Positions 3,001 through 30,401 of a DNA stretch of 64,000 nt are shown here, one piece after another. The DNA is taken from the NCBI RefSeq assembly GCF_008806375.1, contig NZ_WAAT01000022.1, forward strand, positions 62,001 to 126,000, given 5' to 3'. Every line of letters begins with the position of its first letter. Position 1 is the first letter of the stretch. The notes under the pieces were generated by a model that saw only the letters and a list, made by a program, of their open reading frames with translations, was not told where the DNA came from and made no database searches. Source of the DNA: Pseudotamlana haliotis (GTDB taxonomy: Bacteria; Bacteroidota; Bacteroidia; Flavobacteriales; Flavobacteriaceae). The translations under genes and the position numbers were made by a program.

Positions 3001-6000
3001 GGTATATAAAAATATCGATTTGGATATGCGTCAGTATAAGCGTATGCGTATGTTTATTCATGCTGAAGATCAAGAGACCGCCGTTGGAACCTTAAAAGAT
3101 ACCGATTTAGTAGGGTATATTAGAATGGGAAATGACCTTACTGAAAATTACTATCAAATTGAAATTCCGCTACAAGTTTCTGGATCAGAGCTATGGCCGG
3201 ATGCCAATGAAATTAATCTTGCCATTGACATGCTCGGACAAATTAAAGCGGAAAGTATATCTAATGGGAATTCCGATTTAACTTTTTATGATGTTATTGG
3301 TGATGATGTGGTACTAGCAAATGACCCTTATTCGGGTTATGTCTTAGGGCAGCACCGTGTAGCTATAAAAGGAAATCCTAACTTTGGAGACATAAGAACA
3401 CTTATGGTAGGAGTTAAAAATGCTAGTGGTAATGATGTGTGTGGTGAAATATGGTTTAATGAGTTGAGATTGTCTGATTTGGATAATGAAGGTGGTTGGG
3501 CTGCTATTGTTAGTATGGACTCCAATATTGCAGATTTTGCCAATGTAAGTGCTACAGGTAGAAAAAGCACCTCTGGTTTTGGATCATTAGAACAAGGACC
3601 TAGTCAACGTAGTTTGGAAGATGTGCAACAGTATGATGTAGTTACTAATGTGAATGTTGGGCAGTTATTACCTAAAAAGTGGGGGGTTCAGTTGCCTTTT
3701 AATTATGGTCAAAGTGAAGCGCTTATCACACCTAAATACGATCAATTCTATAAAGATTTAACATTAGAATCTCGATTAGAGGCCGCTAGTACAGACGCCG
3801 AAAAAGAACAAATCAAACAACAATCTGAAGATTATACTAGCCGACAAAGCATCAACTTTATTGGGGTGCGCAAAATAAGAACTACAGACAAGAAACCACG
3901 TTTTTATGATGTGGAGAATTTCACACTGAACTACTCGTATAATAAAGTGGAACATCGTGATTTTGAAATAGAAAATTCAGTAAATAAAACACTTCGAATG
4001 GGCGCTAATTATGCGCATAATTTTGAGCCTTTAGTTATTGAACCTTTCCAAAAGAACGACTCCTTATTTACAGGGCAGTATTGGAAAATTTTAAAAGATT
4101 TTAACTTCAACCTGCTTCCGGCAAGTTTCACGGTAAATACAGATTTAAATCGTCAATACAATAGGCAAAAGTTTAGAGAAGTAGATCTCTCAGCTAGCGA
4201 TATCGCTATTGAAGAATTGTATAGAAGAAACTACATGTTCGATTTTCAGTATGTGGTTAATTATAATTTAACTAAATCGTTGCAGCTTAACTTTACGGCA
4301 ACTAATAATAATATTGTACGTAACTATTTTGTTGATGACGGTACTAATAACTTCGAACAAGATAATTCATTAGGCGTATGGGATGGTATTTTAGATTTTG
4401 GTGATCCTAATAGGCAAACCAACAATTTAGGAATTACCTACCAATTGCCTTTTAATAAAATACCAACCTTTAGTTTCTTAGATGTAACTTACCAATATAC
4501 GGGAAGTTTTCAATGGCAAAAGAGTTCCGATTTATATCAAGAAGTGGAGCTTAATGGTTCTGTCTACGATTTAGGTAATACCATTCAAAACTCTAATGTT
4601 CATAATATTAACTCATCTATGGATATGAACCGTTTGTATAAGTACATCGGTTTAACTAAAAAACCTGTAAGTACAGCTAGAAGACGTGGTGTGCCAGGGC
4701 CAGCCGAGGCACAAGTTCCTGGTCAAACTCAAAACCAAGCAAAACCTAAATCGAGTAAACAAACGGGAACAAAATTATTGAATGCTGGTATTGATTTATT
4801 AACCAGTGTGAAACGTATTCAAGTTAATTATTCTGAAAATAATGGTACATTTTTACCTGGTTACTTACAAACACCTGGTTTTATAGGAACGACAAAGCCT
4901 TCTTTAGGATTTATTTTTGGGGGTCAAAGCGATGTGAGAGATATGGCAGCAAGAAAGGGCTGGTTAACTGTTTTTCCAGAATTTAATCAGCAGTATACGA
5001 CTACAGAGACTAAGCAGTTAGATATATCGGCTAGTGTACAACCGGTACGAGATTTAAAAATTGACATCATTGGTTCTCGTGCTTATTATGAAAATTATGC
5101 TGAAAACTATAAAATTGAGAACGATGAATATTATTCATTAACACCAAATACCTTTGGTAATTTTAATATTTCAACCTTATTGATTAAAACAGCTTTTCAG
5201 GAAAGTAGCGAAAATGTTTCTCAGGCCTTTAGCGATTTTAGGTCAAATCGTTTAACCATAGCCGATAGGTTAGCCGAAGAATTTTACGGAACGAATAACT
5301 ATGCTAGAGACGCTGAAGGGTATCCTTTAGGGTTTGGTAAAAATAATCAACAGGTTTTACTGCCATCGTTTTTAGCGGCCTACCAAGGTAAAGATGCAGA
5401 AAGCATTACCACAGAAACTTTTAGAAGTGTACCAATTCCAAACTGGGATTTAAAGTATACTGGTTTTATGAAGTTTGCGTGGTTTAAGAAAAATTTTAAG
5501 CGCTTTTCATTGACACACGGTTATCGATCAACTTATACGATTAACCAATTTTCAACCAATTTAAATCTAAATTTAGATCCAGCTGCTAATGAGCGCCCAA
5601 TTCCAGGTGTGCCTTACGCAAATCAGCCTCAGGATGCTTTAGATCAATCTGGAAACTATAAAAATGAAACCTTATACAGCAATATCAACTTAGCTGAAAT
5701 GTTTAGTCCCCTTATGCGTATGGATTTGGAGATGAAGAATTCAGTCAAAATTTTAGCTGAAATTAAAAAGGATAGATTGTTGTCCTTAAGCTTTGACAAT
5801 AATTTAATGACCGAAGTTCACGGTAACGAATATATTTTAGGTTTAGGTTACCGTATTAAAGACTTACGTATACGCTCTAAATTGGCTGGGCCACAAAAAC
5901 GAATCATTAGTGATTTAAACATGAAAGCAGATGTTTCGGTAAGGGAGAATAAAACTATTGTGAGGTATTTGGATTTAGATAATAATCAAATTACCTCAGG

Positions 6001-6166
6001 ACAAACCATTTGGGGTGTGAAATATACGGCCGATTATGCGTTTAGTAAAAATCTTACTGGTATCTTTTATTTTGATTATACTTTTTCCGATTATGCTATT
6101 TCAACAGCCTTTCCACAAACAACCGTGCGATCAGGGGTTACAATTCGATATAATTTCGGGAATTAA
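2..6166 (+). CDS. sprA: SprA, type IX secretion/gliding outer-membrane translocon (5' partial)
   Basis: The reading frame is open from base 2, so the N-terminus lies outside the window and the GTG at 170 is only an internal codon. About 2,050 residues are visible; family members are roughly 2,400. SprA is the giant beta-barrel through which type IX secretion substrates cross the outer membrane, and it is also needed for gliding. The visible part has long stretches of alternating hydrophobic/polar strands, repeated Asn/Asp-rich loops and a C-terminus ending in a strand (VTIRYNFGN), as expected for a barrel. An internal Pro/Gln/Lys-rich stretch lies near 4,700-4,770. The neighbours gcvH, VanZ and TonB match the sprA neighbourhood I know from flavobacteria. 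Confidence 0.95.
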   Translation, partial: SEHIGLQTPPAGFVNASPGAFPDNENNDFDPTNIGGAGSQLTDAVRDIATVQQGILVPNVSEGADYAKLENARKLTEGQEYTLNSELGYISLNQRLSNDEVLAVAFQYTISGKVYQVGEFANDGVDATEVDTDTNGNVTNVVNSSLILKMLKSSVTDVNQPVWDLMMKNIYDTGAYNLTEEDFKLNIFYNEASPLNFISPTGSDFANDINGNPVGPNTNEKDLIQNAPLLRVFNLDKLNFNNDPQARGDGFFDFVPGVTVIPTNGKIVFTSAEPFGEYLFNILGGGDYSDELTYNDDQKKYVYDVLYKDTKTRALESVEKNKFKLKGRYKSSGGDGIPIGSFNVPRGSVRVTAGGRVLVEGIDYTVNYQLGRVQILDEALKASNTPIEVSTENNAVFGQQTRRFTGFNVEHKFNDNFVLGGTFLNLNERPVTQKANYGTESINNSIFGLNGNYATKVPFLTRLVNKLPNIDTDVESNVSLRGEFAYLSPGAPKGTDLNGEATSYIDDFEGSQNGIDLKSQLSWFLSSRPLDLNVPSNPNEDDNGIQNGYQRALLNWYSIDPVFYSSQRPDGITDDDISGLYTSRVFINELFPDRDLVQGQNTVLFTLDLAYYPTERGPFNFDPNTANGVISNPQDSWAGITRQITSTDFEQQNVEYIDFWVQDPFQENPNNPGGKLVFNLGNISEDIIKDGKKLYENGLPKDGDVTFLQPTTWGTVTPQNQSLVYAFDSTGDERTNQDVGYDGYNDAEEASAFGAQFGDDPSNDNYTYFLNADGDIFDRYKKYNGVEGNTPDSFSNTDRGANTQPDVEDINRDNTMNTIDSYYEYELDLNRQNLPTTEADFENLPDSNPLKQFLRDYKERPRQLPNGQTTNVRWYQFRVPVEGAHATPVGNISDLRSVRFSRIYLKEFTEPTVFRFGTLELVRSDWRRYTLPLDENDPDPTDPNTDFSVGVIGTLENEGRYESPPGIEPEQLYNNNTVVRQNEQSLVVEVCGLEVEDSRGVYKNIDLDMRQYKRMRMFIHAEDQETAVGTLKDTDLVGYIRMGNDLTENYYQIEIPLQVSGSELWPDANEINLAIDMLGQIKAESISNGNSDLTFYDVIGDDVVLANDPYSGYVLGQHRVAIKGNPNFGDIRTLMVGVKNASGNDVCGEIWFNELRLSDLDNEGGWAAIVSMDSNIADFANVSATGRKSTSGFGSLEQGPSQRSLEDVQQYDVVTNVNVGQLLPKKWGVQLPFNYGQSEALITPKYDQFYKDLTLESRLEAASTDAEKEQIKQQSEDYTSRQSINFIGVRKIRTTDKKPRFYDVENFTLNYSYNKVEHRDFEIENSVNKTLRMGANYAHNFEPLVIEPFQKNDSLFTGQYWKILKDFNFNLLPASFTVNTDLNRQYNRQKFREVDLSASDIAIEELYRRNYMFDFQYVVNYNLTKSLQLNFTATNNNIVRNYFVDDGTNNFEQDNSLGVWDGILDFGDPNRQTNNLGITYQLPFNKIPTFSFLDVTYQYTGSFQWQKSSDLYQEVELNGSVYDLGNTIQNSNVHNINSSMDMNRLYKYIGLTKKPVSTARRRGVPGPAEAQVPGQTQNQAKPKSSKQTGTKLLNAGIDLLTSVKRIQVNYSENNGTFLPGYLQTPGFIGTTKPSLGFIFGGQSDVRDMAARKGWLTVFPEFNQQYTTTETKQLDISASVQPVRDLKIDIIGSRAYYENYAENYKIENDEYYSLTPNTFGNFNISTLLIKTAFQESSENVSQAFSDFRSNRLTIADRLAEEFYGTNNYARDAEGYPLGFGKNNQQVLLPSFLAAYQGKDAESITTETFRSVPIPNWDLKYTGFMKFAWFKKNFKRFSLTHGYRSTYTINQFSTNLNLNLDPAANERPIPGVPYANQPQDALDQSGNYKNETLYSNINLAEMFSPLMRMDLEMKNSVKILAEIKKDRLLSLSFDNNLMTEVHGNEYILGLGYRIKDLRIRSKLAGPQKRIISDLNMKADVSVRENKTIVRYLDLDNNQITSGQTIWGVKYTADYAFSKNLTGIFYFDYTFSDYAISTAFPQTTVRSGVTIRYNFGN

Positions 6167-6238
6167 CATATATGCTATTTGAATTTAACATTTGAATAAA
6201 TACATTTGCTGCTTATTATTAACTAAAAATATTTAGAG

Positions 6239-6619
6239 ATGAACATTCCTTCAGAATTAAAGTACACTAAAGATCACGAATGGGTTAAATTAGATGGCGA
6301 CATTGCAACAATAGGCGTTACAGATTTTGCACAGAGTGAATTAGGAGATATTGTATATGTGGAGGTAGAAACTCTAGATGAAACTTTAGAGGCCGATGAG
6401 ATTTTTGGAACCGTAGAAGCGGTAAAAACGGTGTCTGATTTATTTTTACCATTATCTGGTGAAATCATTGAGTTTAATGAATCTTTAGAAGATGAGCCTG
6501 AAAATGTAAATTCTGATCCTTACGGTGCAGGATGGATGATTAAGGTAAAATGTTCAGAGGTGTCTCAGGCTGAAGGTTTGATGTCGGCTGATGAATATAA
6601 AGCCCTTATTGGTGCTTAA
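6239..6619 (+). CDS. gcvH: Glycine cleavage system H protein
   Basis: The product is 126 residues, the normal family length. It is the lipoyl carrier of the glycine cleavage complex and shuttles the aminomethyl group between the P and T proteins. The lipoylation site is the lysine at residue 63 in the motif GTVEAVKTVSDLF. The N-terminal KYTKDHEWV and the later PYGAGWM segment are also typical. It starts 72 bases after sprA; its 3' end overlaps the next gene by 29 bases. No P or T protein gene is in the window, so the carrier is separated from its partners. Confidence 0.97.
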   Translation: MNIPSELKYTKDHEWVKLDGDIATIGVTDFAQSELGDIVYVEVETLDETLEADEIFGTVEAVKTVSDLFLPLSGEIIEFNESLEDEPENVNSDPYGAGWMIKVKCSEVSQAEGLMSADEYKALIGA

Positions 6620-6980
6620 AATCATCGCTCCTATTGCTGCAATAGGATATACCGTATTTCTAGCAACAGTATGTCTTATCACCATAAATGATCTTCCTAA
6701 TGTTGGGGTGTCATTTGCTGATAAGATCTTTCATTTTTTAGCTTACGGATTATTAACCATTTTATGGTATGCCACCTTTTTGCTGAATTTTAACTTAAAG
6801 GAAAAACAGGCCATTTTATATGCGCTTATTTTTTCGGTGGTTTTTGGTATACTTATTGAGGTGTTACAAGATACTTTGACGGTTTCTAGAGCTTTAGATA
6901 TTTTTGATATGGTGGCAAACACAATTGGTGCCCTATTAGCAGCTTTAACTCTAATGATTAAAAATAAAATCTTGCGTTAA
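6591..6980 (+). CDS. VanZ-like family membrane protein
   Basis: This is a 129-residue, very hydrophobic protein with about four membrane segments and the conserved acidic/His pattern of the VanZ-like family (DKIFHFLAYGLL, then IEVLQ and DIFDMVANTIG). VanZ-like proteins are small inner-membrane proteins; apart from a link to teicoplanin resistance for VanZ itself, the function is unknown. The chosen ATG lies inside the end of gcvH (29-base overlap). A later start is possible, but this one gives a complete first membrane segment and suggests translational coupling to gcvH. Confidence 0.85.
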   Translation: MNIKPLLVLKIIAPIAAIGYTVFLATVCLITINDLPNVGVSFADKIFHFLAYGLLTILWYATFLLNFNLKEKQAILYALIFSVVFGILIEVLQDTLTVSRALDIFDMVANTIGALLAALTLMIKNKILR

Positions 6981-7052
6981 AAACTTTTGAAACGCTTGTT
7001 ATTTTGGTAAATAAATAGTTATTTTAGCAATCTTGATAAACGAAATTAAATT

Positions 7053-7772
7053 ATGGAACTTAAAAAAAATCCTAAAGCAGATGTTGGACGTAACAGTTCA
7101 CTATATTTATTGGTAGGTCTAGCGTTAATGCTATTTCTTACAAATTACGCAATAAACTATAAAACCTATGATAAGGAAGATATAGATATTGGAATGGTAA
7201 ATATGGATGAGGAATTAGAAGAAGATATTCCATTAACAGAGCAGATACAAACGCCACCGCCACCTCCGCCACCACCAGCGGCTCCAGAGGTTATTGAAAT
7301 CGTTGAAGATGAGGTTGAGGTTGAAGAAACAGTAATCGAATCTACAGAAGTTGATCAAGAAACTGAAATTGTAGAGGTTGAAGAAGTAGAGGTTGAAGAA
7401 GTAGAAGAAGATATTGATGTACCGTTTTCAGTTATTGAAAATGTACCAGTTTTCCCTGGTTGTGAAAAAGGTAGCAACAATGAAAAGAGAGCTTGTATGT
7501 CTAAAAAGATTTCTCAATTTGTAAATAAAAAGTTTAACACTGAGTTAGCTAGTGAGTTAGGTTTAACAGGAAGACAACGTATTAACGTTATTTTCAAAAT
7601 TGATAAAACGGGTTCTATTACAGGTGTAAGAGCTAGAGCGCCACACCCAGGATTAGAAAAAGAAGCTGCTCGTGTAATTAACTTATTACCTAAAATGAAA
7701 CCTGGAAAGCAACGTGGTAAGCCGGTAAACGTTCCATATTCTTTACCAATTATTTTCCAAGTTCAAGATTAA
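7053..7772 (+). CDS. Energy transducer TonB-family protein (polyproline type)
   Basis: A 239-residue protein in the standard TonB order: short cytoplasmic N-terminus, one membrane helix (about residues 15-35), a periplasmic spacer with eight consecutive prolines followed by an acidic Glu/Val-rich stretch (about residues 90-130), and a TonB C-terminal domain (about residues 140-239). It would pass proton-motive-force energy from ExbB/ExbD to outer-membrane receptors. The C-terminal domain carries the Bacteroidota motif PVFPGCE with a second Cys eleven residues later. ExbB/ExbD are not in the window. A strong terminator follows at 7823-7852. Confidence 0.9.
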   Translation: MELKKNPKADVGRNSSLYLLVGLALMLFLTNYAINYKTYDKEDIDIGMVNMDEELEEDIPLTEQIQTPPPPPPPPAAPEVIEIVEDEVEVEETVIESTEVDQETEIVEVEEVEVEEVEEDIDVPFSVIENVPVFPGCEKGSNNEKRACMSKKISQFVNKKFNTELASELGLTGRQRINVIFKIDKTGSITGVRARAPHPGLEKEAARVINLLPKMKPGKQRGKPVNVPYSLPIIFQVQD

Positions 7773-7822
7773 GCATGACATCTTAACTAAGTTTACTTAA
7801 AGTATACTTAGAATTAAATATA

Positions 7823-7852
7823 AAATCCCGTTACATTTCTGTAACGGGATTT
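7823..7852 (+). terminator. Intrinsic terminator after the first tonB gene
   Basis: A perfect 12-bp stem (AAATCCCGTTAC paired with GTAACGGGATTT) has a 6-base loop and runs directly into a T-run reaching 7858. It ends the gcvH-VanZ-tonB transcript and separates it from the second TonB-family gene. Confidence 0.9.
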
Positions 7853-7910
7853 TTTTTTGGTACGCTTATTGTGATTTTATCATAATATTAACATAAAATC
7901 AATACATATT

Positions 7911-8699
7911 ATGAGTAATCAAAAGAAAACTCACGAGCTCAATCGCCAAAATGAGCAAGTCGTGAAAAAATCACAAAAGCATGATGCAAATTTACAAAAA
8001 AACACCATGGTTTATTTTCAAGTGGGGTTAATCATGTGTTTAATTGCTGTGTTTGCCTTGTTAGAAATGAATTTTGAAACAACAATTCCTAAGCCTGAAA
8101 CCGGTTTGCCGCCAATTAAGGATGTCGCTTGGGTAGATGTGCCACTAATTAGAACAGAGGTTCCAGAGCTCATTGAGCCAGTAGCAAGTAAACCTAAGAA
8201 AGAACCCGTAACTTTTGAAGTGATTGATGATGATGATCCCGTAAAGCCCGTTACGGAAGAACTCAAAAAAAAGGAAGCTCCTGTTGTTTTAAACCCTGAT
8301 GCTTTGAAACCATTAGTTGATAAGCCAACTGATGAAGAACCGGTTAATTTTGTGGCTATTCAAGAAGCGCCTATTTATCCGGGTTGTGAAAAAACCAAGG
8401 GCAATGAAGCTCGAAAGAAATGTATGTCTGAAAAAATCACCAAGCTCATTCAGAAAAAATTTGACGGTGGTGGTATTGCTTCAAATTACAACTTATCAGG
8501 TCTACAGAGAATACATGTGCAATTTACGATTGATAAATCAGGACATGTTACTCATATTCAAACCCGAGCACCACATCCAGAACTTCAAAAGGAAGCTGAA
8601 CGGGTTATAAAAATCATTCCAGAAATGACCCCAGGTAGGCAACATGATAAAAATGTAGATGTTATTTATAATCTGCCCATTGTTTTTCAAGTACAATAG
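7911..8699 (+). CDS. Second TonB-family protein
   Basis: A 262-residue paralogue of the preceding protein. It has a basic, Gln/Lys-rich cytoplasmic N-terminus, one membrane helix (about residues 33-53), a Lys/Pro/Glu spacer without a polyproline run, and a TonB C-terminal domain (about residues 165-262). That domain is close to the first copy, with shared APHP, RVI and LPIVFQVQ segments. The motif PIYPGCE is followed by a second Cys twelve residues later. Its own terminator follows, so it is probably transcribed alone. It most likely transduces energy to a different set of receptors, or to the neighbouring RemB-like protein; that pairing is inference. Confidence 0.88.
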   Translation: MSNQKKTHELNRQNEQVVKKSQKHDANLQKNTMVYFQVGLIMCLIAVFALLEMNFETTIPKPETGLPPIKDVAWVDVPLIRTEVPELIEPVASKPKKEPVTFEVIDDDDPVKPVTEELKKKEAPVVLNPDALKPLVDKPTDEEPVNFVAIQEAPIYPGCEKTKGNEARKKCMSEKITKLIQKKFDGGGIASNYNLSGLQRIHVQFTIDKSGHVTHIQTRAPHPELQKEAERVIKIIPEMTPGRQHDKNVDVIYNLPIVFQVQ

Positions 8700-8709
8700 T
8701 AAATTTCAA

Positions 8710-8742
8710 AAACCGTTATTGTTTTAAGATGACGGTTTTTTT
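8710..8742 (+). terminator. Intrinsic terminator after the second tonB gene
   Basis: A 10-bp stem (AAACCGTTAT paired with ATGACGGTTT, one G-U pair) has a 9-base loop and is followed by a T-run. Confidence 0.8.
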
Positions 8743-8834
8743 ATGTTGTTAGTAGGTATAATGTTTTAACTTTAAATTCGGAATATAAAAAATATAGTAT
8801 CTTTCGCCACTAAAACAACTTGATACAAATAAAC

Positions 8835-10934
8835 ATGAAGCAATTCATTGTACTACTCCTACTTTTAGTTCAACTTAATGGCTTTGCTCAGCAAACGTAT
8901 TCTAAAGAGCGTCCACCAGTTTTCCCAGAATGTGAAGCGGTTTCTGCTGACGAACTCCAACAGTGTTTTGATCAAGGGGTCTTTAATCGCATTTATGATC
9001 ATTTTAAGGTTCCAGAACGTGTTTATAATGAAAATTATAAAGGTGAAGTTGTGGTCCTTTTTGAAGTAGATACCCTAGGGGCTTTCCGCGTGATTTATAT
9101 TGATGCTTATTATGAGGAGTTGAAAGCCGAAACTAAACGTGTGTTTTCAGAGTTTCCAACTGTTAAACCTGCGACCTATAACTCAAGAAATACTTTTAAA
9201 CAATATTCTTTTCCTATAAAAATACCATTAGTAGATCAGGCAGCAGCATCACAAGATTTATCAAAAGTGAATCAGTTAGCGGCTTTAGAAGAACAAGCTA
9301 AGCGCGAATTTGATAGTGTAACTGCACAAACACGCCGTTTTGATAAGCCCAATTATAAGAGTCAGTTAAACATTCCGTTTGTGCATGCTGAATATGCTAA
9401 GTTTGATCGAGAGATGAACCTTGTTGGCACCAATAGTCATACAGGAGCAAAACCATTCATCTATTCTGAAGTGTCAAAATATTATGATTTTGATGCTGAA
9501 AACCAAAAATTACTTCAAGATAGAAAAACTTGGGTAGGGCGTAAATTATGGAATGAACATTTTGTAGAATTACAAACCGATAATTATTGGTTTACTGTAG
9601 ATCCTGTTTTTGACCTTCAAGTTGGTAAAGACACTGATGCTGATTTCAATTATACCTATAATAATACTCGGGGCCTTGTGGTTCAAGGTGGTTTTGGTGA
9701 AAAATTTAATTTTTATACGTCATTCTTAGAAAGTCAAGGACGCTTTGCTGATTATTTTAATCGTTACGCAGAAAGCTTAAAAGGTTTTGGTCCTGACCCT
9801 GCTGTTATTCCTGGTAGAGGAATTGCTAAGCGTTACAAAACAGATGCCTATGATTACCCTGTGGCTGAAGCTTACTTGTCTTATACACCATCAAAATATT
9901 TTAATTTTCAATTTGGTCATGGTAAAAACTTCATAGGTGATGGTTACCGTTCTTTAGTACTTAGTGATGTTGCTAGTCCGCACCCCTTTTTCAAAATAAA
10001 TACAACGTTTTGGAAAATGAAATACACCAATACTTGGATGTGGTTAACCGATATACGTCCTGAAGTCGAGGAAGACAAGGCCTTCAAAAGAAAGTATATT
10101 GCAAATCATTTTTTAAGTTGGAACGTTTCAAAGCGTTTAAACTTAGGGTTTTTTGAATCTGTGGTTTGGGATAATGCCAACGACAGAGGTTTTGATGTGA
10201 ATTACCTAAACCCTGTGATTTTTTATAGAGCTGTGGAGTTTGAAACGGGTCAAGGGGCAGGAAATGCACTTATGGGGATGACTGCTAAGTATAAATGGAA
10301 TGACAACATCAACATATACGGTCAGTTTATTTTAGATGAATTTTCTCTTGGAGATATAACAGGCGGTGAGAAAAGCTGGAAAAACAAGTACGGTTATCAA
10401 TTAGGAATTAAATATTACGATGCTTTTAAGGTAGATAACCTATTGCTTCAGTTTGAGTATAATCGTGTGCGTCCGTATACGTATTCTCATAATACTATTG
10501 TACTTAACTATGCGCATAGTAATCAGTCGATGGCGCATTTATGGAACTCAAATTTCAGTGAAGCTATTGTAATTGGTCGTTACCACTATGATAGATGGTT
10601 TGCTAATGCCAAGCTTATTTTTGGAGTAAGAGGTTTTGACTTTAATGAGGGCGGTGATAACTATAGTTATGGCGGTGATATTTATAGAGATTATAATGAT
10701 CGTCCATATGATACCGGGGTAGAAGTAGGTCAAGGTATAAAAACCAATATTTTTAATGGAAACTTACAGGCGGGGTATTTATTAAATGTAGCTTCGAATA
10801 TGAAGATTTTTGCAGACGTCACATTTAGAGATTTCGATCCCAACGCTACAACCTCTACAACTTACCAAAACAACACGGTTTGGTTTACCTTTGGTATGCG
10901 CTCCGATTTGTTTAATTGGTATTTCGATTTTTAA
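8835..10934 (+). CDS. remB: RemB-like gliding motility outer-membrane protein with N-terminal TonB-C-like domain
   Basis: About 699 residues from the ATG at 8835, chosen because it begins a clean signal peptide (MKQFIVLLLLLVQLNGFAQ); an upstream TTG at 8820 is in frame. Residues 28-132 resemble the TonB C-terminal domains of the two preceding genes: PVFPECE, a second Cys eleven residues later, then a V-x-F-x-VD strand and a PTVKPA segment. The rest is rich in aromatic-flanked beta strands and ends with an aromatic-rich strand (RSDLFNWYFDF), as expected of an outer-membrane barrel. Position near sprA fits RemB of gliding flavobacteria, which affects surface motility. The RemB name rests on family and context memory, not an alignment. 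Confidence 0.7.
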   Translation: MKQFIVLLLLLVQLNGFAQQTYSKERPPVFPECEAVSADELQQCFDQGVFNRIYDHFKVPERVYNENYKGEVVVLFEVDTLGAFRVIYIDAYYEELKAETKRVFSEFPTVKPATYNSRNTFKQYSFPIKIPLVDQAAASQDLSKVNQLAALEEQAKREFDSVTAQTRRFDKPNYKSQLNIPFVHAEYAKFDREMNLVGTNSHTGAKPFIYSEVSKYYDFDAENQKLLQDRKTWVGRKLWNEHFVELQTDNYWFTVDPVFDLQVGKDTDADFNYTYNNTRGLVVQGGFGEKFNFYTSFLESQGRFADYFNRYAESLKGFGPDPAVIPGRGIAKRYKTDAYDYPVAEAYLSYTPSKYFNFQFGHGKNFIGDGYRSLVLSDVASPHPFFKINTTFWKMKYTNTWMWLTDIRPEVEEDKAFKRKYIANHFLSWNVSKRLNLGFFESVVWDNANDRGFDVNYLNPVIFYRAVEFETGQGAGNALMGMTAKYKWNDNINIYGQFILDEFSLGDITGGEKSWKNKYGYQLGIKYYDAFKVDNLLLQFEYNRVRPYTYSHNTIVLNYAHSNQSMAHLWNSNFSEAIVIGRYHYDRWFANAKLIFGVRGFDFNEGGDNYSYGGDIYRDYNDRPYDTGVEVGQGIKTNIFNGNLQAGYLLNVASNMKIFADVTFRDFDPNATTSTTYQNNTVWFTFGMRSDLFNWYFDF

Positions 10935-11939: not shown

Positions 11940-12521
11940 ATGGATTTAACTCAAGGGACGAAAGAAGAAAAAATAGGCAGAGCAAAAAAGATGATGCTGT
12001 GGTTTGGTATCATTTCATTAGTGATGTCTTTTGCAGGTTGGACCAGTGCTTTTGTTGTGAGTAGTAGCCGACCAGATTGGTTAAAGGATTTTCAGTTGCC
12101 TAATGCTTTTTTGATAAGTACCGTTGTTATTGTAATAAGTAGTATCACCTTCATTTTAGCTAAAAAAGCACTTAAGTCGGGGTCTTCAAAAGCAACCATG
12201 CTGTGGTTGTTAGTTACACTAGTTTTAGGTGTTGTTTTTATTTATAATCAATTTGCGGGCTTTCAGCAAATTATAGATTTGGGCTATAATTTTACTGGAC
12301 CTACCAGTAATGTGACTATGTCCTATATTTATTTGATTGCTCTAGTGCATATTGTACATGTTCTTGTGGGCTTAATTTGCCTTCTCGTTGTAATTTTTAA
12401 TCAATTTAAACAGAAGTATAGTGACTCTAATATGCTAGGGTTTGAACTTGCCGCTATTTTTTGGCATTTCATTGATATTCTTTGGGTTTACCTCTTTTTA
12501 TTCCTCTATTTTGTGAGATAA
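11940..12521 (+). CDS. Cytochrome c oxidase subunit III-like protein (short form)
   Basis: 193 residues with five predicted membrane helices and the haem-copper oxidase subunit III signature near the end (ELAAIFWHFIDILWVYLFLFLYF). The start is 2 bases after cyoE, so the two are co-transcribed. A second, longer subunit III gene follows 137 bases downstream; paired subunit III genes are common in Bacteroidota oxidase clusters. This one lacks the soluble insert of the longer copy. Confidence 0.9.
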   Translation: MDLTQGTKEEKIGRAKKMMLWFGIISLVMSFAGWTSAFVVSSSRPDWLKDFQLPNAFLISTVVIVISSITFILAKKALKSGSSKATMLWLLVTLVLGVVFIYNQFAGFQQIIDLGYNFTGPTSNVTMSYIYLIALVHIVHVLVGLICLLVVIFNQFKQKYSDSNMLGFELAAIFWHFIDILWVYLFLFLYFVR

Positions 12522-25443: not shown

Positions 25444-25455
25444 GATTTACAAACA
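25444..25455 (+). repeat. Left copy of 12-bp direct repeat (target-site duplication)
   Basis: GATTTACAAACA immediately precedes the left miniature IS copy. The identical 12 bases follow the right copy at 29092-29103. Neither miniature IS copy has matching repeats on its inner side. Target duplications of about this length are known in the IS4 family. Confidence 0.85.
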
Positions 25456-25979
25456 TTGTTGTCCGATAAAAATCGGAATTAGCTGAAATCGCTTTATTGC
25501 TGCTTTATTTTATTGATATTGCCCTGCTTTTTGAAAATAGAATCTCACTATGGATCAAAAAGGCTTAATTGTCCAGTATTTTTAGTTGTGATTTCTTCCC
25601 ATTTAGCTTCTGGGTTTTTCAGGTTTTTTAAAAGGTCTATATAGGTCATTAAATGATATCGGATAACGGACATCATATTGGAACAGGCCCAATTTCTTCG
25701 GGCTTTTCTTTGAATCACAAGCATAATGAGATGGACTATCAAACTGACTTAGATTTGTATTTCGATAGCATTTTGATTGTCGCCTAGAAAATACTTTAAG
25801 GGAAAGTTCTGTTTAATCCGCTTGAACATCGTCTCGATCTGCCACCTGTTTTATTATAGGGTGTCCGCTAAAGTTTTACTTTTATTCATATCTCGAATCT
25901 GTGGTAACTTTAAGATATAAAATAAGCGGGAATTCCTATCTTGGAAATCCGCTTTTAAAATCTTTTATCGGACACTACT
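25456..25979 (-). mobile_element. Miniature IS4-family element, copy 1
   Basis: 524 bases with inverted ends sharing GTCCGATAAAA. On the minus strand it holds the first codons of a transposase joined by an internal deletion to its C-terminal end. That end keeps NRWQIE...LIKQ, the R-(3)-E-(6)-K part of the IS4 YREK signature, then KYFLGDNQNAIEIQI, a TAA stop and the remaining C-terminus to FDP (stop at 25548). About two thirds of a normal transposase is missing. It is about 97% identical by eye to copy 2 and in the same orientation. Confidence 0.85.
25548..25889 (-). pseudogene. Transposase remnant in IS copy 1
   Basis: It starts with ATG at 25889 and is frameshifted after a few codons by one missing base relative to copy 2. 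It then carries the C-terminal transposase part with a TAA after IQI, where IS4-type relatives usually have Trp. It cannot make an active transposase: the two upstream catalytic Asp regions are deleted. Confidence 0.8.
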
Positions 25980-25988
25980 TAATGTATT

Positions 25989-26555
25989 CTAAAACTTTAT
26001 ACCTAGACTTATTCCAAATCCTTTAAACAAAACACTAACAGGCGTTTCATTCCCAAAGATTAAAGGCTCTGCATCTTCAAGGTTTAAAGAATTTATATCT
26101 CCATAAACATTAAGATTTAAATTAAATTTGTCTGTTTTCAAAACTGGAAAACCTATCCCAAGTCTTGCATTATCGCCATTTTTAAACTTATCCTTATTAA
26201 AAGATAAGTTTCCAGCATAACGGACATAAGCAAAAACATTATCATCATCTACAAAATAATATTTCAAATTACCCCCAACACGAAAAATAACGAACCCTCC
26301 ACCAAATTGGTTTTGTATTCCTGCTAAAGCCCCCACACTTAATTTTTTAAAGACTAAGTAGTTTATAGAATATTGTCCACCTATAGATGGTTTAGAGTCT
26401 AAAGAAATAGTGGTACTTAAACCCTCAAATCGATAAAGATAGTCTATGTTATTTGGTACAGTAAAGTCAACCGAAGCACTTGAAAACCATTTTTCCTGCG
26501 AATAACTATTTATATAAAGCAAGGAAACTATTGTAATTAAAATTAGCTTTTTCAT
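25989..26555 (-). CDS. Small outer-membrane beta-barrel protein (mobile-unit cargo)
   Basis: 188 residues from the ATG at 26555, chosen because it starts a clear signal peptide (MKKLILITIVSLLYINSYSQ); a longer in-frame start exists at 26606. The mature part alternates short strands and turns (SIGGQYSINYLVFKKLSVGA, LKYYFVDDDNVFAYVRYAGN) and ends SLGIKF, the pattern of an 8-10 stranded barrel. No family name can be given. It lies 18 bases downstream of the decayed lipoprotein gene, so the two probably formed an operon. This cargo gene has no visible lesion. Confidence 0.7.
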   Translation of the reverse strand: MKKLILITIVSLLYINSYSQEKWFSSASVDFTVPNNIDYLYRFEGLSTTISLDSKPSIGGQYSINYLVFKKLSVGALAGIQNQFGGGFVIFRVGGNLKYYFVDDDNVFAYVRYAGNLSFNKDKFKNGDNARLGIGFPVLKTDKFNLNLNVYGDINSLNLEDAEPLIFGNETPVSVLFKGFGISLGIKF

Positions 26556-26572
26556 AATGATGAATTTATTTA

Positions 26573-28251
26573 TTAATCTTTTGCAATTACCCTGCTTCCT
26601 CTCCAAGTACTTCCTCGTCTAGCAAGAGCGTAAAAATCTAAATCAAAATAAGTATATTCCCTAAAATGTTGACTTACTGGACCTGCATAGTTGAATTTCC
26701 ATCCGCTTTTATCGCCCCACACAAAACCTATCTCAAAATTCGGACCACTATTGTAAAGTGTATTTTTAATGTAATTAGAGTTCCTCTTACGGCTAATTTT
26801 ACCGAAATAAACAACCTCTATTCGATTATAGTCATGTTGATAGATTACAGAAAATTCCTTTTCCTGCGCCCCACTATTTGTAACACTTGAGGATTCTAAA
26901 AAATCTATTCCCATTTTATACAAAGACTTTATAGTACTATTATTAACAATATCACCTGTAGTTACCGAAATTCCATTTTTTAAACCATCTATATTATTCA
27001 ATCGAGGAATATAAATATTTAAAATTTCCTTTTGTTCGAATTTAATAAACGGCAACCCCACATCTTTATAATTTAATTGTGCATCAACATAATGAGACCC
27101 ATTAATACTATTTTTTATTTTAAAACTACCATCCCACATATAAATAGGGCTTTGATATGAATTAGGAGGGAACAATTGTGGGTGAGAATAAGAAGTTATT
27201 TCAGGTTGAGGCATATTATATCGCAATAAAATTCGATTGATGCCTAACACTAATTCATCTGATTCAGAAGCCCACCATATACCTAATGTTTTTGTTTGAG
27301 TTTTAGCTTGTACACCAACAGACTCATAAAAGAAATAATCTTGACTCCAAAATTCCGTTTTAATTCTACGTCTACTATCAAAATAATCTACACATACGTA
27401 TGTTGTTCCTAAGATGTTTTGTGTCCAAGGCTGATAATGTTTACACGCAGTCAAATTATTAATTAAATTATAAAGTTTCTCATCTTCAGAAATTTGTGTT
27501 GTAGGAGTTGATGTTGGGATAATTGGCGAAAAACTGTTACTTAACTGACATGCATTAAGTTGAGCAGGGGCAACATATAAAAATGCATCATCTGCAATCA
27601 TTCTAGTACCACTATTTATAGTTCTTTCATCGCAATACCCTTGATATTCCAATGTAACTGGAGCTGCTTTTGAAAGGGAAGAATTTTATTATCCTTTTTC
27701 ATTATTTTATCATAGGCTTGAAATAATGAAGCAGAATCCTTTACATGAGAAAAAAATATTCCTTTTCTTTTCGAAAACTTATAAAGCGTGTCATTTACTA
27801 TAATTTCATCTTTTTGATTTAAAAAAGCCCCCACTAAAGGGTCTGATATAAAATCTTCTTCTTCTACTATACCATTGTTTTTTCCTTTACCTTTCTTGTA
27901 CAATGATGTAGTTTCTCCCATTTCAACCTTTTGAATAATCTCCTTTCAAAGTTGTTCTTTCAATAATTCATTTTTAGGACTAACAATAGGTTTATGAGAA
28001 CGAAACCCTTTTTCGTAATAACCCTCTAAATTGTTTCCAATTACTTCAACATTTTCCTGTTTTAATTGTTCCATAGTAGATTCAAAATCTTCTCTAGACG
28101 AGAAAACAAACCTCCCATTTTTAACATTTGCATCAATTTTTGATGAAGATGAATTACTGTTTTTATAGTCATATAAATCCACATCTTCCTTTTGACAAGA
28201 TGCTAAGATAATTACTAAAATTACTAAAATTTGATATTTGAAAATTTTCAT
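26573..28251 (-). pseudogene. Surface lipoprotein gene broken by an in-frame TGA and a frameshift (cargo)
   Basis: Three reading frames form one gene of about 560 codons. It begins with a lipoprotein signal (lipobox ILASC, Cys19) and a segment NGRFVFSSREDFESTM common in Bacteroidota lipoproteins of unknown function. At 27946-27948 a TGA splits ...LLKEQL from KEIIQKVEMGET in the same frame. Near 27670 a one-base loss after KILPF shifts the frame; restoring it gives KAAPVTLEYQGYCDERT and runs to the end at 26573. The C-terminal half is Tyr/Trp-rich. No function can be assigned. Confidence 0.75.
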
Positions 28252-28567
28252 ATGATTATTCTTTTTACGCTTTTATTTATATTAATTATTAAAATTCTCA
28301 TTAACAGCTAATGAGAATTTAGCTAGTTTTTTACCTGAATCTAACGCCACTATTTCAGGTGTATTTCCAAGGTTTCCGATTAACTACACTTTGTTTTTTA
28401 ATGAATTCGTAACGCAATAATTGATAGGTGAATTCTTACGTAAAGATAAGATTTTTACGTTAAACATGCAGCGTAAAAAACATAAAATTGTTTGAGGGTT
28501 TTTCTAAAAAGTATGGTTGCAGTTTTAAATTATCTATGATATAATACTTTCTTTTTATTATTTTCCA
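28252..28567. other. Gene-free stretch inside the mobile unit
   Basis: 316 bases, AT-rich, with no plausible gene. It holds a perfect 12-bp hairpin stem at 28292-28320 (core AATTCTCATTA / TAATGAGAATT) and a second short inverted repeat around 28436-28460 (ACGTAAA / TTTACGT). It would be the upstream region of the decayed lipoprotein gene; no confident promoter was identified. Confidence 0.5.
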
Positions 28568-29091
28568 TTGTTGTCCGATAAAAATCGGAATTAGCTGAAA
28601 TCGCTTTGTTCTGCTTTATTTTATTGATATTGCCATGCTTTTTGAAAATAGAATCTCACTATGGATCAAAAAGGCTTAATTGTCCAGTATTTTTAGTTGT
28701 GATTTCTTCCCATTTAGCTTCTGGGTTTTTCAGGATTTTGAAAAGGTCTATATAGGTCATTAAATGATATCGGATAACGGACATCATATTGGAATACGTC
28801 CAATTTCTTTGGGCTTTTCTTTGAATCACAAGCATAATGAGCTGGACTATCAAACTGACCTAGACTTGTATTTTGATGGCATTTTGATTGTCGCCTAGAA
28901 AATACTTTAAGGGAAAGTTCTGTTTAATCAGCTTGAACATCGTCTCGATCTGCCACCTGTTTTATTATAGGGTGTCCGCTAAAGTTTTTACTTTTATTCA
29001 TATCTCGAATCTGTGGTAACTTTAAGATATAAAATAAGCGGGAATTCCTATCTTGGAAATCCGCTTTTAAAATCTTTTATCGGACACTACT
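28568..29091 (-). mobile_element. Miniature IS4-family element, copy 2
   Basis: 524 bases, same orientation and same internal deletion junction as copy 1, with about fifteen substitutions and two compensating one-base indels by eye. The start of the transposase reads MNKSKNFSGHPIIKQ before it leaves frame. The C-terminal remnant has NRWQIETMFKLIKQ, then a TAG after IQV, and ends FDP (stop at 28659). The shared deletion shows the miniature form existed before the two copies came to flank this segment. Confidence 0.85.
28659..29001 (-). pseudogene. Transposase remnant in IS copy 2
   Basis: It begins at the ATG at 29001, runs 15 plausible transposase codons, then crosses the deletion junction into the C-terminal part in another frame. 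A TAG follows IQV. The Asp-containing catalytic regions are absent, so it is non-functional; any movement would need transposase supplied in trans. Confidence 0.8.
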
Positions 29092-29103
29092 GATTTACAA
29101 ACA
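29092..29103 (+). repeat. Right copy of 12-bp direct repeat (target-site duplication)
   Basis: GATTTACAAACA directly abuts the right end of copy 2 and is identical to 25444-25455. It marks the outer boundary of the mobile unit. Confidence 0.85.
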
Positions 29104-29390: not shown

Positions 29391-30401
29391 ATGAAATTTA
29401 AAACCTTTATGATTACCCTCTTTGTGGTAATAAATTGTCAGGTCTTTTATTCACAGGAAGGCATGCCTATTTATGCAGATTATTTGAGTGATAACTACTA
29501 TCTCATACATCCTTCTATGGCTGGAGCAGCCAATTGTGCTAAAATAAGGGTTACTGCTAGACAGCAATGGTTTGGGCAAGAAGATGCTCCAAAATTGTTA
29601 ACTATGAGTGTGAATAGTAAAATTGGAGAAAGCAATTCTGCTATTGGAGGTATTGTATATGCCGATAACAATGGCTATCATTCTCAAAAAGGCGCCTATG
29701 CCACCTACGCACATCATCTTATGTTTTCCCGAAGTACTACAGATTTAAACATGCTATCTTTTGGTTTAAGTGCTGGGTTTTTACAGTATCAATTGGATGA
29801 AAGAGATTTTTTAAATGATGTACCTGTTCGTGATCCAATAATTGATGGTGTTGTACAAAGTGAGACTAATTTTAATCTAGATTTTGGTTTTTCATATCAT
29901 TATTTAGATTTTTATGCCCATGCTACGGTTAAAAACTTACTTAATAATTCTGGGGTTAATAACGATCTTCAAATTACAAGTAACTTAAGACGTTTCTTAT
30001 TTTCTACAGGATATGTTTATAACAAAATGGGGAGCTCCTGGGCTTTTGAACCTTCTGTGTTATACCAATATAAATCTGGAACTAAAGAAAGTATTATTGA
30101 TTTAAATGCTAAGGCCTATAAAACTATGGAATTCGGACAATTATGGGCTGGGTTATCTTATAGACAAAGCTTAGATGGTGCTGAATACCTTACAGATTCA
30201 GGATCTATCAGAAGTCAGAAACTCAATCAAATTACACCTATAGTTGGTGTTAACTACAATAAGTTTATGTTTGCTTATACTTATACCTACCAAACTAATG
30301 ATGTGGTGTTTACTAATGGTGGTTTTCATCAATTATCTTTAGGGTATAATTTTAATTGTGCGCCTAAACGTTACCAATGTCTTTGTCCCGCTGTAAATTA
30401 A
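29391..30401 (+). CDS. PorP/SprF-family type IX secretion membrane protein
   Basis: 336 residues with a signal peptide (cleavage near FYSQ) and the family hallmarks: an early NYYLIHPSMAGAANCAKIRVTARQQW-like segment (about residues 35-60, consensus N-P-A-x-A-G then R-x-Q-W) and a run of beta strands ending in LSLGYNFNC. SprF-type proteins are outer-membrane barrels that help export or anchor particular type IX substrates. They are usually encoded next to their adhesin partner; none is here, and the gene sits alone beside the mobile unit. The last residues (CAPKRYQCLCPAVN) are Cys-rich. Confidence 0.9.
   Translation: MKFKTFMITLFVVINCQVFYSQEGMPIYADYLSDNYYLIHPSMAGAANCAKIRVTARQQWFGQEDAPKLLTMSVNSKIGESNSAIGGIVYADNNGYHSQKGAYATYAHHLMFSRSTTDLNMLSFGLSAGFLQYQLDERDFLNDVPVRDPIIDGVVQSETNFNLDFGFSYHYLDFYAHATVKNLLNNSGVNNDLQITSNLRRFLFSTGYVYNKMGSSWAFEPSVLYQYKSGTKESIIDLNAKAYKTMEFGQLWAGLSYRQSLDGAEYLTDSGSIRSQKLNQITPIVGVNYNKFMFAYTYTYQTNDVVFTNGGFHQLSLGYNFNCAPKRYQCLCPAVN

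What the first reader, a model, noticed from the sequence alone, without database searches (positions are those of the whole stretch)
25444..29103. Composite-like mobile unit bounded by two miniature IS4 derivatives, with a 12-bp target duplication only on the outer edges
GATTTACAAACA occurs directly outside the left end of copy 1 and directly outside the right end of copy 2. The inner junctions show no repeats. Both copies are 524-bp deletion derivatives in the same orientation, so the outer boundary carries a proper inverted-end pair. This means either the whole 3.6 kb moved as one unit using transposase in trans, or a circle carrying the cargo plus one copy recombined into a resident copy. 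A miniature element mobilising envelope-protein cargo would be unusual. The 12-bp duplication length fits the IS4 family.
Basis: partly seen in the sequence, partly recalled or inferred. Interest (0 to 1): 0.75.

Follow-up and report, generated by a model that had tools for sequence, protein, structure and literature searches.

The report
Cargo moved by two dead transposons
Two shortened, transposase-less copies of a jumping gene bracket a pair of envelope genes, and the matching short repeats at the outer edges suggest the whole 3.6 kb block jumped as one piece with a borrowed enzyme, an arrangement already described in other bacteria.

Summary
In detail: two 527-bp IS derivatives (25454-25980, 28566-29092; same orientation, 17 differences) bracket a 2.6-kb cargo, and GATTTACAAACA lies only at the outer edges. 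As a duplication it is 9 bp (ATTTACAAA), not 12: a related full-length IS in a congener (G003) places G and CA inside the element, and 28 of 39 distinct intact G003 copies have perfect 9-bp repeats. Both window copies share one deletion junction and one nonsense codon, so the element was dead before it was copied; no full-length relative was found in this draft genome. In the five other held congeners nifU and porP are neighbours with no room for the unit. Best reading: a miniature-element composite transposon (IS4 family), moved in trans by a transposase now absent. Recombination of a cargo circle with a resident copy is not excluded, and no exact empty site could be read. The kind is known (TIME-COMP, MITE-flanked integrons); my searches listed no IS4-family case from Flavobacteriaceae. 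The cargo, a lipoprotein gene (here a pseudogene) plus a small secreted protein, is patchy: 9 of 397 family genomes.

The parts
25445..25453 (.). left 9-bp target duplication ATTTACAAA
   Evidence: register from IS ends
25454..25980 (-). miniature IS copy 1 (transposase remnant reads on minus); inner last base 25980 is T where copy 2 and G003 copies have G
25749..25751 (-). stop (TAA) in copy 1 at a Trp codon of the transposase
25845..25858 (.). deletion junction in copy 1 (approximate; short imperfect repeat)
25981..28565 (-). cargo segment; 25986-28288 is 78% identical to G003 L056:6608-8908
25989..26555 (-). 188-aa secreted protein, second cargo gene; barrel-like by inference only
26573..28251 (-). 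lipoprotein gene, pseudogene: split into three ORFs by a stop and a 1-nt deletion
28566..29092 (-). miniature IS copy 2
28860..28862 (-). stop (TAG) in copy 2 at the same Trp codon
28956..28969 (.). same deletion junction in copy 2 (approximate)
29093..29101 (.). right 9-bp target duplication ATTTACAAA
24472..25377 (-). NifU-like gene, left neighbour
29391..30401 (+). PorP/SprF gene, right neighbour

Best explanation
A non-autonomous composite transposon. An IS4-family element of about 1.39 kb lost the middle of its transposase gene by deletion between short repeats and took a nonsense mutation. The dead 527-bp derivative was then copied, so that two copies in the same orientation flanked a lipoprotein/small secreted protein gene pair. 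A transposase supplied by a full-length relative recognised the left end of copy 1 and the right end of copy 2 and inserted the 3.6-kb unit between nifU and porP, duplicating the 9-bp target ATTTACAAA. Shown: the anatomy, the 9-bp outer repeat, the shared lesions, absence of the cargo at this site in congeners. Inferred: supply in trans, one-step movement of the whole unit, later loss (or absence from the assembly) of the full-length IS.
For: Perfect 9-bp repeat at the outer edges only, in the register that the ends of a related IS dictate (perfect 9-bp repeat in 28, and 8 of 9 in 4 more, of 39 distinct intact G003 copies). The two outer ends keep CA...TG termini, while the inner end of copy 1 has a changed terminal base. 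Both copies carry the same deletion junction and the same Trp-to-stop codon, so the element could not move itself when it was copied. Only these two copies, and no other transposase remnant of this kind, in the own genome. nifU and porP are neighbours in G001-G005 with spacers too short for a 527-bp copy or the cargo. The cargo lies at another place in G003, the nearest IS copy about 3.5 kb away. Inner flanks do not form a convincing repeat.
Against: No second strain was available, and the spacer is too diverged to read an exact empty site. No transposase source and no solo derivative in this genome now, so activity in trans is inferred. The target matrix from G003 sites does not favour the 9-bp register over its neighbour. 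A cargo circle released from another composite and recombined into a resident copy would look the same.
Confidence: 0.62

Rival explanations
1. A solo 527-bp derivative inserted between nifU and porP with its own 9-bp duplication; later a circle (or incoming DNA) carrying the cargo plus one derivative recombined with it, leaving a copy on each side.
For: Gives the same outer-only repeat. In G003 the cargo sits beside a duplicated recA 3' end (94% identical), so this gene pair has elsewhere entered a genome by a route that looks like recombination.
Against: A circle whose copy had arrived by simple transposition should show a 9-bp repeat at the inner flanks; they match at 6 of 9. A circle released from another composite escapes this test but needs extra events. 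No solo derivative elsewhere in this genome.
Confidence: 0.22
2. An ordinary composite transposon with two full-length IS copies inserted here; the copies were later reduced to the same deletion form by deletion of one and gene conversion of the other.
For: Full-length relatives of the IS exist in the genus (G003: 35 intact elements in 38 fetched loci; 47 exact left ends). The 17 differences are unevenly spread (9 within 84 columns), which could reflect past conversion.
Against: Needs deletion, nonsense and conversion after insertion, then 3% divergence; both lesions are shared.
Confidence: 0.1
3. Coincidence or assembly artefact: two unrelated derivative insertions, or a false join, with a chance repeat outside.
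For: AT-rich flanks raise chance matches (2.0% of random 9-mer pairs match at 6 or more); draft genome in 76 contigs.
Against: A perfect 9-bp match in the register of the IS ends; the 12-mer occurs only at these two places in 64 kb; the locus is internal to a 268-kb contig.
Confidence: 0.06

Closest known systems
TIME-COMP elements (Tn3-derived miniature composites, PMC4133298; passages seen)
   Same: two transposase-less miniature copies, in TIME-COMP2 in the same orientation, flank cargo without transposition genes; target repeat at the outer edges
   Different: Tn3 family, 262-bp TIMEs, 5-bp repeats, movement shown with a trap plasmid; here IS4 family, 527 bp, 9-bp repeat, sequence evidence only
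439-bp MITE-flanked class 1 integrons of Acinetobacter (PMC3934969; passages seen)
   Same: two MITEs in the same direction around cargo, direct target repeats; the author leaves transposition or homologous recombination open
   Different: 5-bp repeat, ends match no known IS, identical MITE copies, resistance cargo on plasmids
IS4 family, subgroup IS4Sa (PMC2266710; passages with Table 1 seen)
   Same: ends CA------T, 1150-1750 bp, 8-10 bp repeats, YREK motif
   Different: window copies are internally deleted; subgroup not tested by a tree
MIC231 mobile insertion cassette of Bacillus cereus (seen only as a reference title in PMC6542083; the rest recalled)
   Same: IS4-family (IS231) ends carrying passenger genes without transposase
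   Different: one pair of ends bounding the passengers, not two complete miniature copies

Membership tests
IS4 family (parent IS) | DDE transposase of the IS4 type | tested here: met
   G003 full-length IS transposase: NF033592 215 bits (cut-off 115), PF01609 93.1 bits (cut-off 23); window remnants 87% identical to its C-terminal part
IS4 family (parent IS) | Y(2)R(3)E(6)K motif | tested here: met
   YKNRWQIETMFKRLK at residue 327 of the G003 transposase
IS4 family (parent IS) | target repeat of about one helix turn | tested here: met
   9 bp, perfect in 28 of 39 distinct intact G003 copies; 9 bp in the window
IS4 family (parent IS) | spacing of the catalytic Asp and Glu residues | not tested
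   no alignment to reference transposases was made
IS4Sa subgroup | ends CA------T, 8-10 bp repeat, 1150-1750 bp | tested here: met
   window ends CATTGTTGT and CAGTAGTGT; the G003 IS is 1386 bp, but one of its ends begins TA; table in PMC2266710
IS4Sa subgroup | transposase falls in the subgroup on a tree | not tested
   no reference transposase set was aligned
MITE / miniature IS | short internally deleted derivative with both IS ends and no functional transposase | tested here: met
   527 bp against 1386 bp, middle of the gene deleted, shared stop
MITE / miniature IS | has moved as a solo element | tested here: inconclusive
   no solo copy in the own genome; G003 short derivatives are of another deletion type with flanks matching at 5 and 6 of 9
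MITE-bounded composite transposon | two copies flank cargo, target repeat only outside | tested here: met
MITE-bounded composite transposon | moves as a unit in trans | not testable with these tools
   needs a transposition assay

The most novel reading that the evidence does not exclude
The lipoprotein/small secreted protein pair is a travelling two-gene module that spreads by unrelated routes: here inside a composite of dead IS4-family derivatives moved in trans, in a congener beside a duplicated recA 3' end with no IS at its edges, and patchily in the family (9 of 397 sampled genomes).
Probability: 0.35. Interest if true: 0.45.

Novelty: new member of a known kind. Interest (0 to 1): 0.3.

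Why it matters
If right, it adds an IS4-family example from Flavobacteriaceae to the composites bounded by miniature elements, carrying envelope genes and not resistance genes. It also shows how AT-rich flanks can make a 9-bp duplication look longer: 9 of 26 perfect single copies in the congener show an apparent repeat of 12 bp or more.

Tried and rejected
A 12-bp duplication was rejected from the ends of the related IS. A target-preference matrix from the 28 perfect G003 sites did not settle the register: ATTTACAAA scored 0.58, TTTACAAAC 1.39, and 7.4% of window 9-mers score at least as high as ATTTACAAA. The two short derivatives in G003 were first taken for the same derivative; the alignment shows a different deletion junction, so they arose independently, and their flanks match at only 5 and 6 of 9. 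Cross-matching flanks between G003 copies gave no clear composite there. A scan of 397 sampled family genomes with copy 2 (two candidates scored per genome in the rows shown) matched 24, most of them partly, and besides the own genome none with one match across the deletion junction; G284 matched both halves about 0.85 kb apart, as a full-length element would. The 277 bp upstream of the cargo gave only short weak matches elsewhere. Structure prediction of the 188-aa protein failed (mean pLDDT 31.2); no fold search was run. Pfam, NCBIfam and PDB sequence searches gave no family above cut-off for the cargo proteins submitted. The 9-mer random draws did not exclude identical positions, so their rates are upper bounds.

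Full report
Observation. The window holds two direct copies of a 527-bp sequence at 25454-25980 and 28566-29092, differing at 17 of 528 aligned columns. GATTTACAAACA stands at 25444-25455 and 29092-29103 and nowhere else in the window on either strand. The inner flanks share 6 of 9 bases; random 9-mer pairs in the area reach 6 or more in 2.0% of draws.

What the copies are. The own genome (3.35 Mb, 76 contigs) gives only these two places with the DNA of copy 1, and with the related transposase only remnants inside them (4 matches). A congener, G003, has many copies: one search lists 40 matches (the number scored), 38 of the full-length type and 2 short derivatives; one search finds 47 exact left ends. 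The other four congeners give none (G001, G002, G004) or one 100-bp match of 74% (G005). I fetched 38 G003 loci; 35 hold an element of exactly 1386 bp with both ends, 3 do not. A transposase from one G003 copy matches IS4-family models (NF033592, 215 bits; PF01609 and PF14294) and has the YREK motif. Of the 35, 26 have a perfect 9-bp target duplication, 2 match at 8 of 9 and 7 at 6 or fewer. With nine more loci, of which four gave further elements under the same exact-end criterion, the count is 28 perfect and 4 at 8 of 9, of 39 with distinct flanks.

Register of the duplication. With ends sought by their inner bases only, 35 of 35 paired G003 elements read CATTAG and TATTGT outside the shared TGTCC. 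Placed on the window, copy 1 begins CATTGTTGTCC and copy 2 ends ACACTACTG. CA is also present at the inner end of copy 2, so it belongs to the element; so does the final G. The duplicated target is ATTTACAAA, 9 bp. The other three bases match because the left flank has G before the target and the right flank has CA after it. Among the 26 perfect single copies in G003, 8 have the G, 12 have two or more matching bases after the target and 6 have both; 9 of 26 show an apparent repeat of 12 bp or more (in one of them, L070, because another IS copy follows directly). A target-preference matrix does not separate this register from the next.

History of the copies. Against a full-length G003 element both window copies lack the same stretch (roughly IS positions 131-987), joined at a short imperfect repeat, and both have a stop at the same Trp codon (TAG in copy 2, TAA in copy 1). 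The derivative was thus dead before it was duplicated. Since then 10 changes fall on copy 1 and 6 on copy 2, one unclear, polarised against that single G003 copy. One copy 1 change is the terminal base of its inner end. The two short derivatives in G003 have a different junction, so such deletions have happened at least twice.

The site. nifU was found in 59 of 60 relatives, of which 30 loci were returned. Of the 29 non-own loci, 15 show PorP DNA within the 1.5-kb flank by nucleotide BLAST (misses may be divergence). In the eight I aligned (the five other congeners and three more genomes) the spacer from nifU to porP is too short for the unit. It is also too diverged to show one clean ATTTACAAA. 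The cargo protein was found in 3 of 60 relatives: the own genome, G003 and G028, the latter two at other places.

The cargo. Window 25986-28288 is 78% identical to G003 L056:6608-8908; the nearest IS copy there starts at 12413, about 3.5 kb off. It is a lipoprotein gene followed by a gene for a ~190-aa secreted protein that I read as a small barrel (inference from sequence; only a sub-threshold DUF481 match in the G003 homologue; structure prediction failed). An intact pair lies in G404 (541 and 193 aa). In 11 loci with lipoprotein matches (several from one genome), relatives of the second gene lie near in 4 (L153, L154, L155, L157; the last at E 0.002), and no stretch of this IS was found in any (flanks of about 1.5 kb). 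The lipoprotein was found in 9 of 397 sampled family genomes, the own genome included, some matches weak and partial; G003 is not among those listed. In the window it is a pseudogene with a stop and a 1-nt deletion; G003 too has it in two ORFs. In G003 the cargo lies between recA and a second recA 3' end (94% identical); the downstream copy is nearer to G001 (96.3% against 93.9%) and is followed by the DNA that follows recA in relatives, although against G002, G005 and the own genome the first copy is slightly nearer. This looks like entry by recombination, not by this IS.

Mechanism. The simplest account is a composite of two miniature IS4-family copies moved once, in trans, by a transposase no longer found. 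Recombination of a cargo circle with a resident copy gives the same product; the lack of an inner repeat argues only against its simplest form.

Known kinds. Composites of two miniature elements are in print: TIME-COMP (PMC4133298, passages) and MITE-flanked integrons (PMC3934969, passages), both with same-orientation pairs; PMC6382973 (passages) mentions further MITE pairs in Acinetobacter. PMC10969869 (passages) added nothing on IS4. The IS features fit the IS4Sa line of Table 1 in PMC2266710 (passages); no tree was made. My paper searches listed no IS4-family composite of this type in Flavobacteriaceae; only the top rows of each were seen (both rows), and the library lacks most subscription journals.

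Noticed in passing
L056 (G003) 5294-9871: The cargo gene pair sits between full recA and a second recA 3' end (94% identical); the DNA after the second copy is what follows recA in relatives.
   Followed up: partly
L070 and L143 (G003:C1:3916759 onward): Tandem pair of the 1386-bp IS: 9-mer, IS, same 9-mer, IS, near-same 9-mer (8 of 9).
   Followed up: partly
L059 and L060 (G003): Two other short derivatives of the same IS with a different deletion junction; one lies about 500 bp from a full-length copy in the same orientation.
   Followed up: partly
window 26573-28251: Lipoprotein family whose tested members have no Pfam, NCBIfam or PDB match above cut-off; patchy in the family (9 of 397 genomes).
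   Followed up: partly
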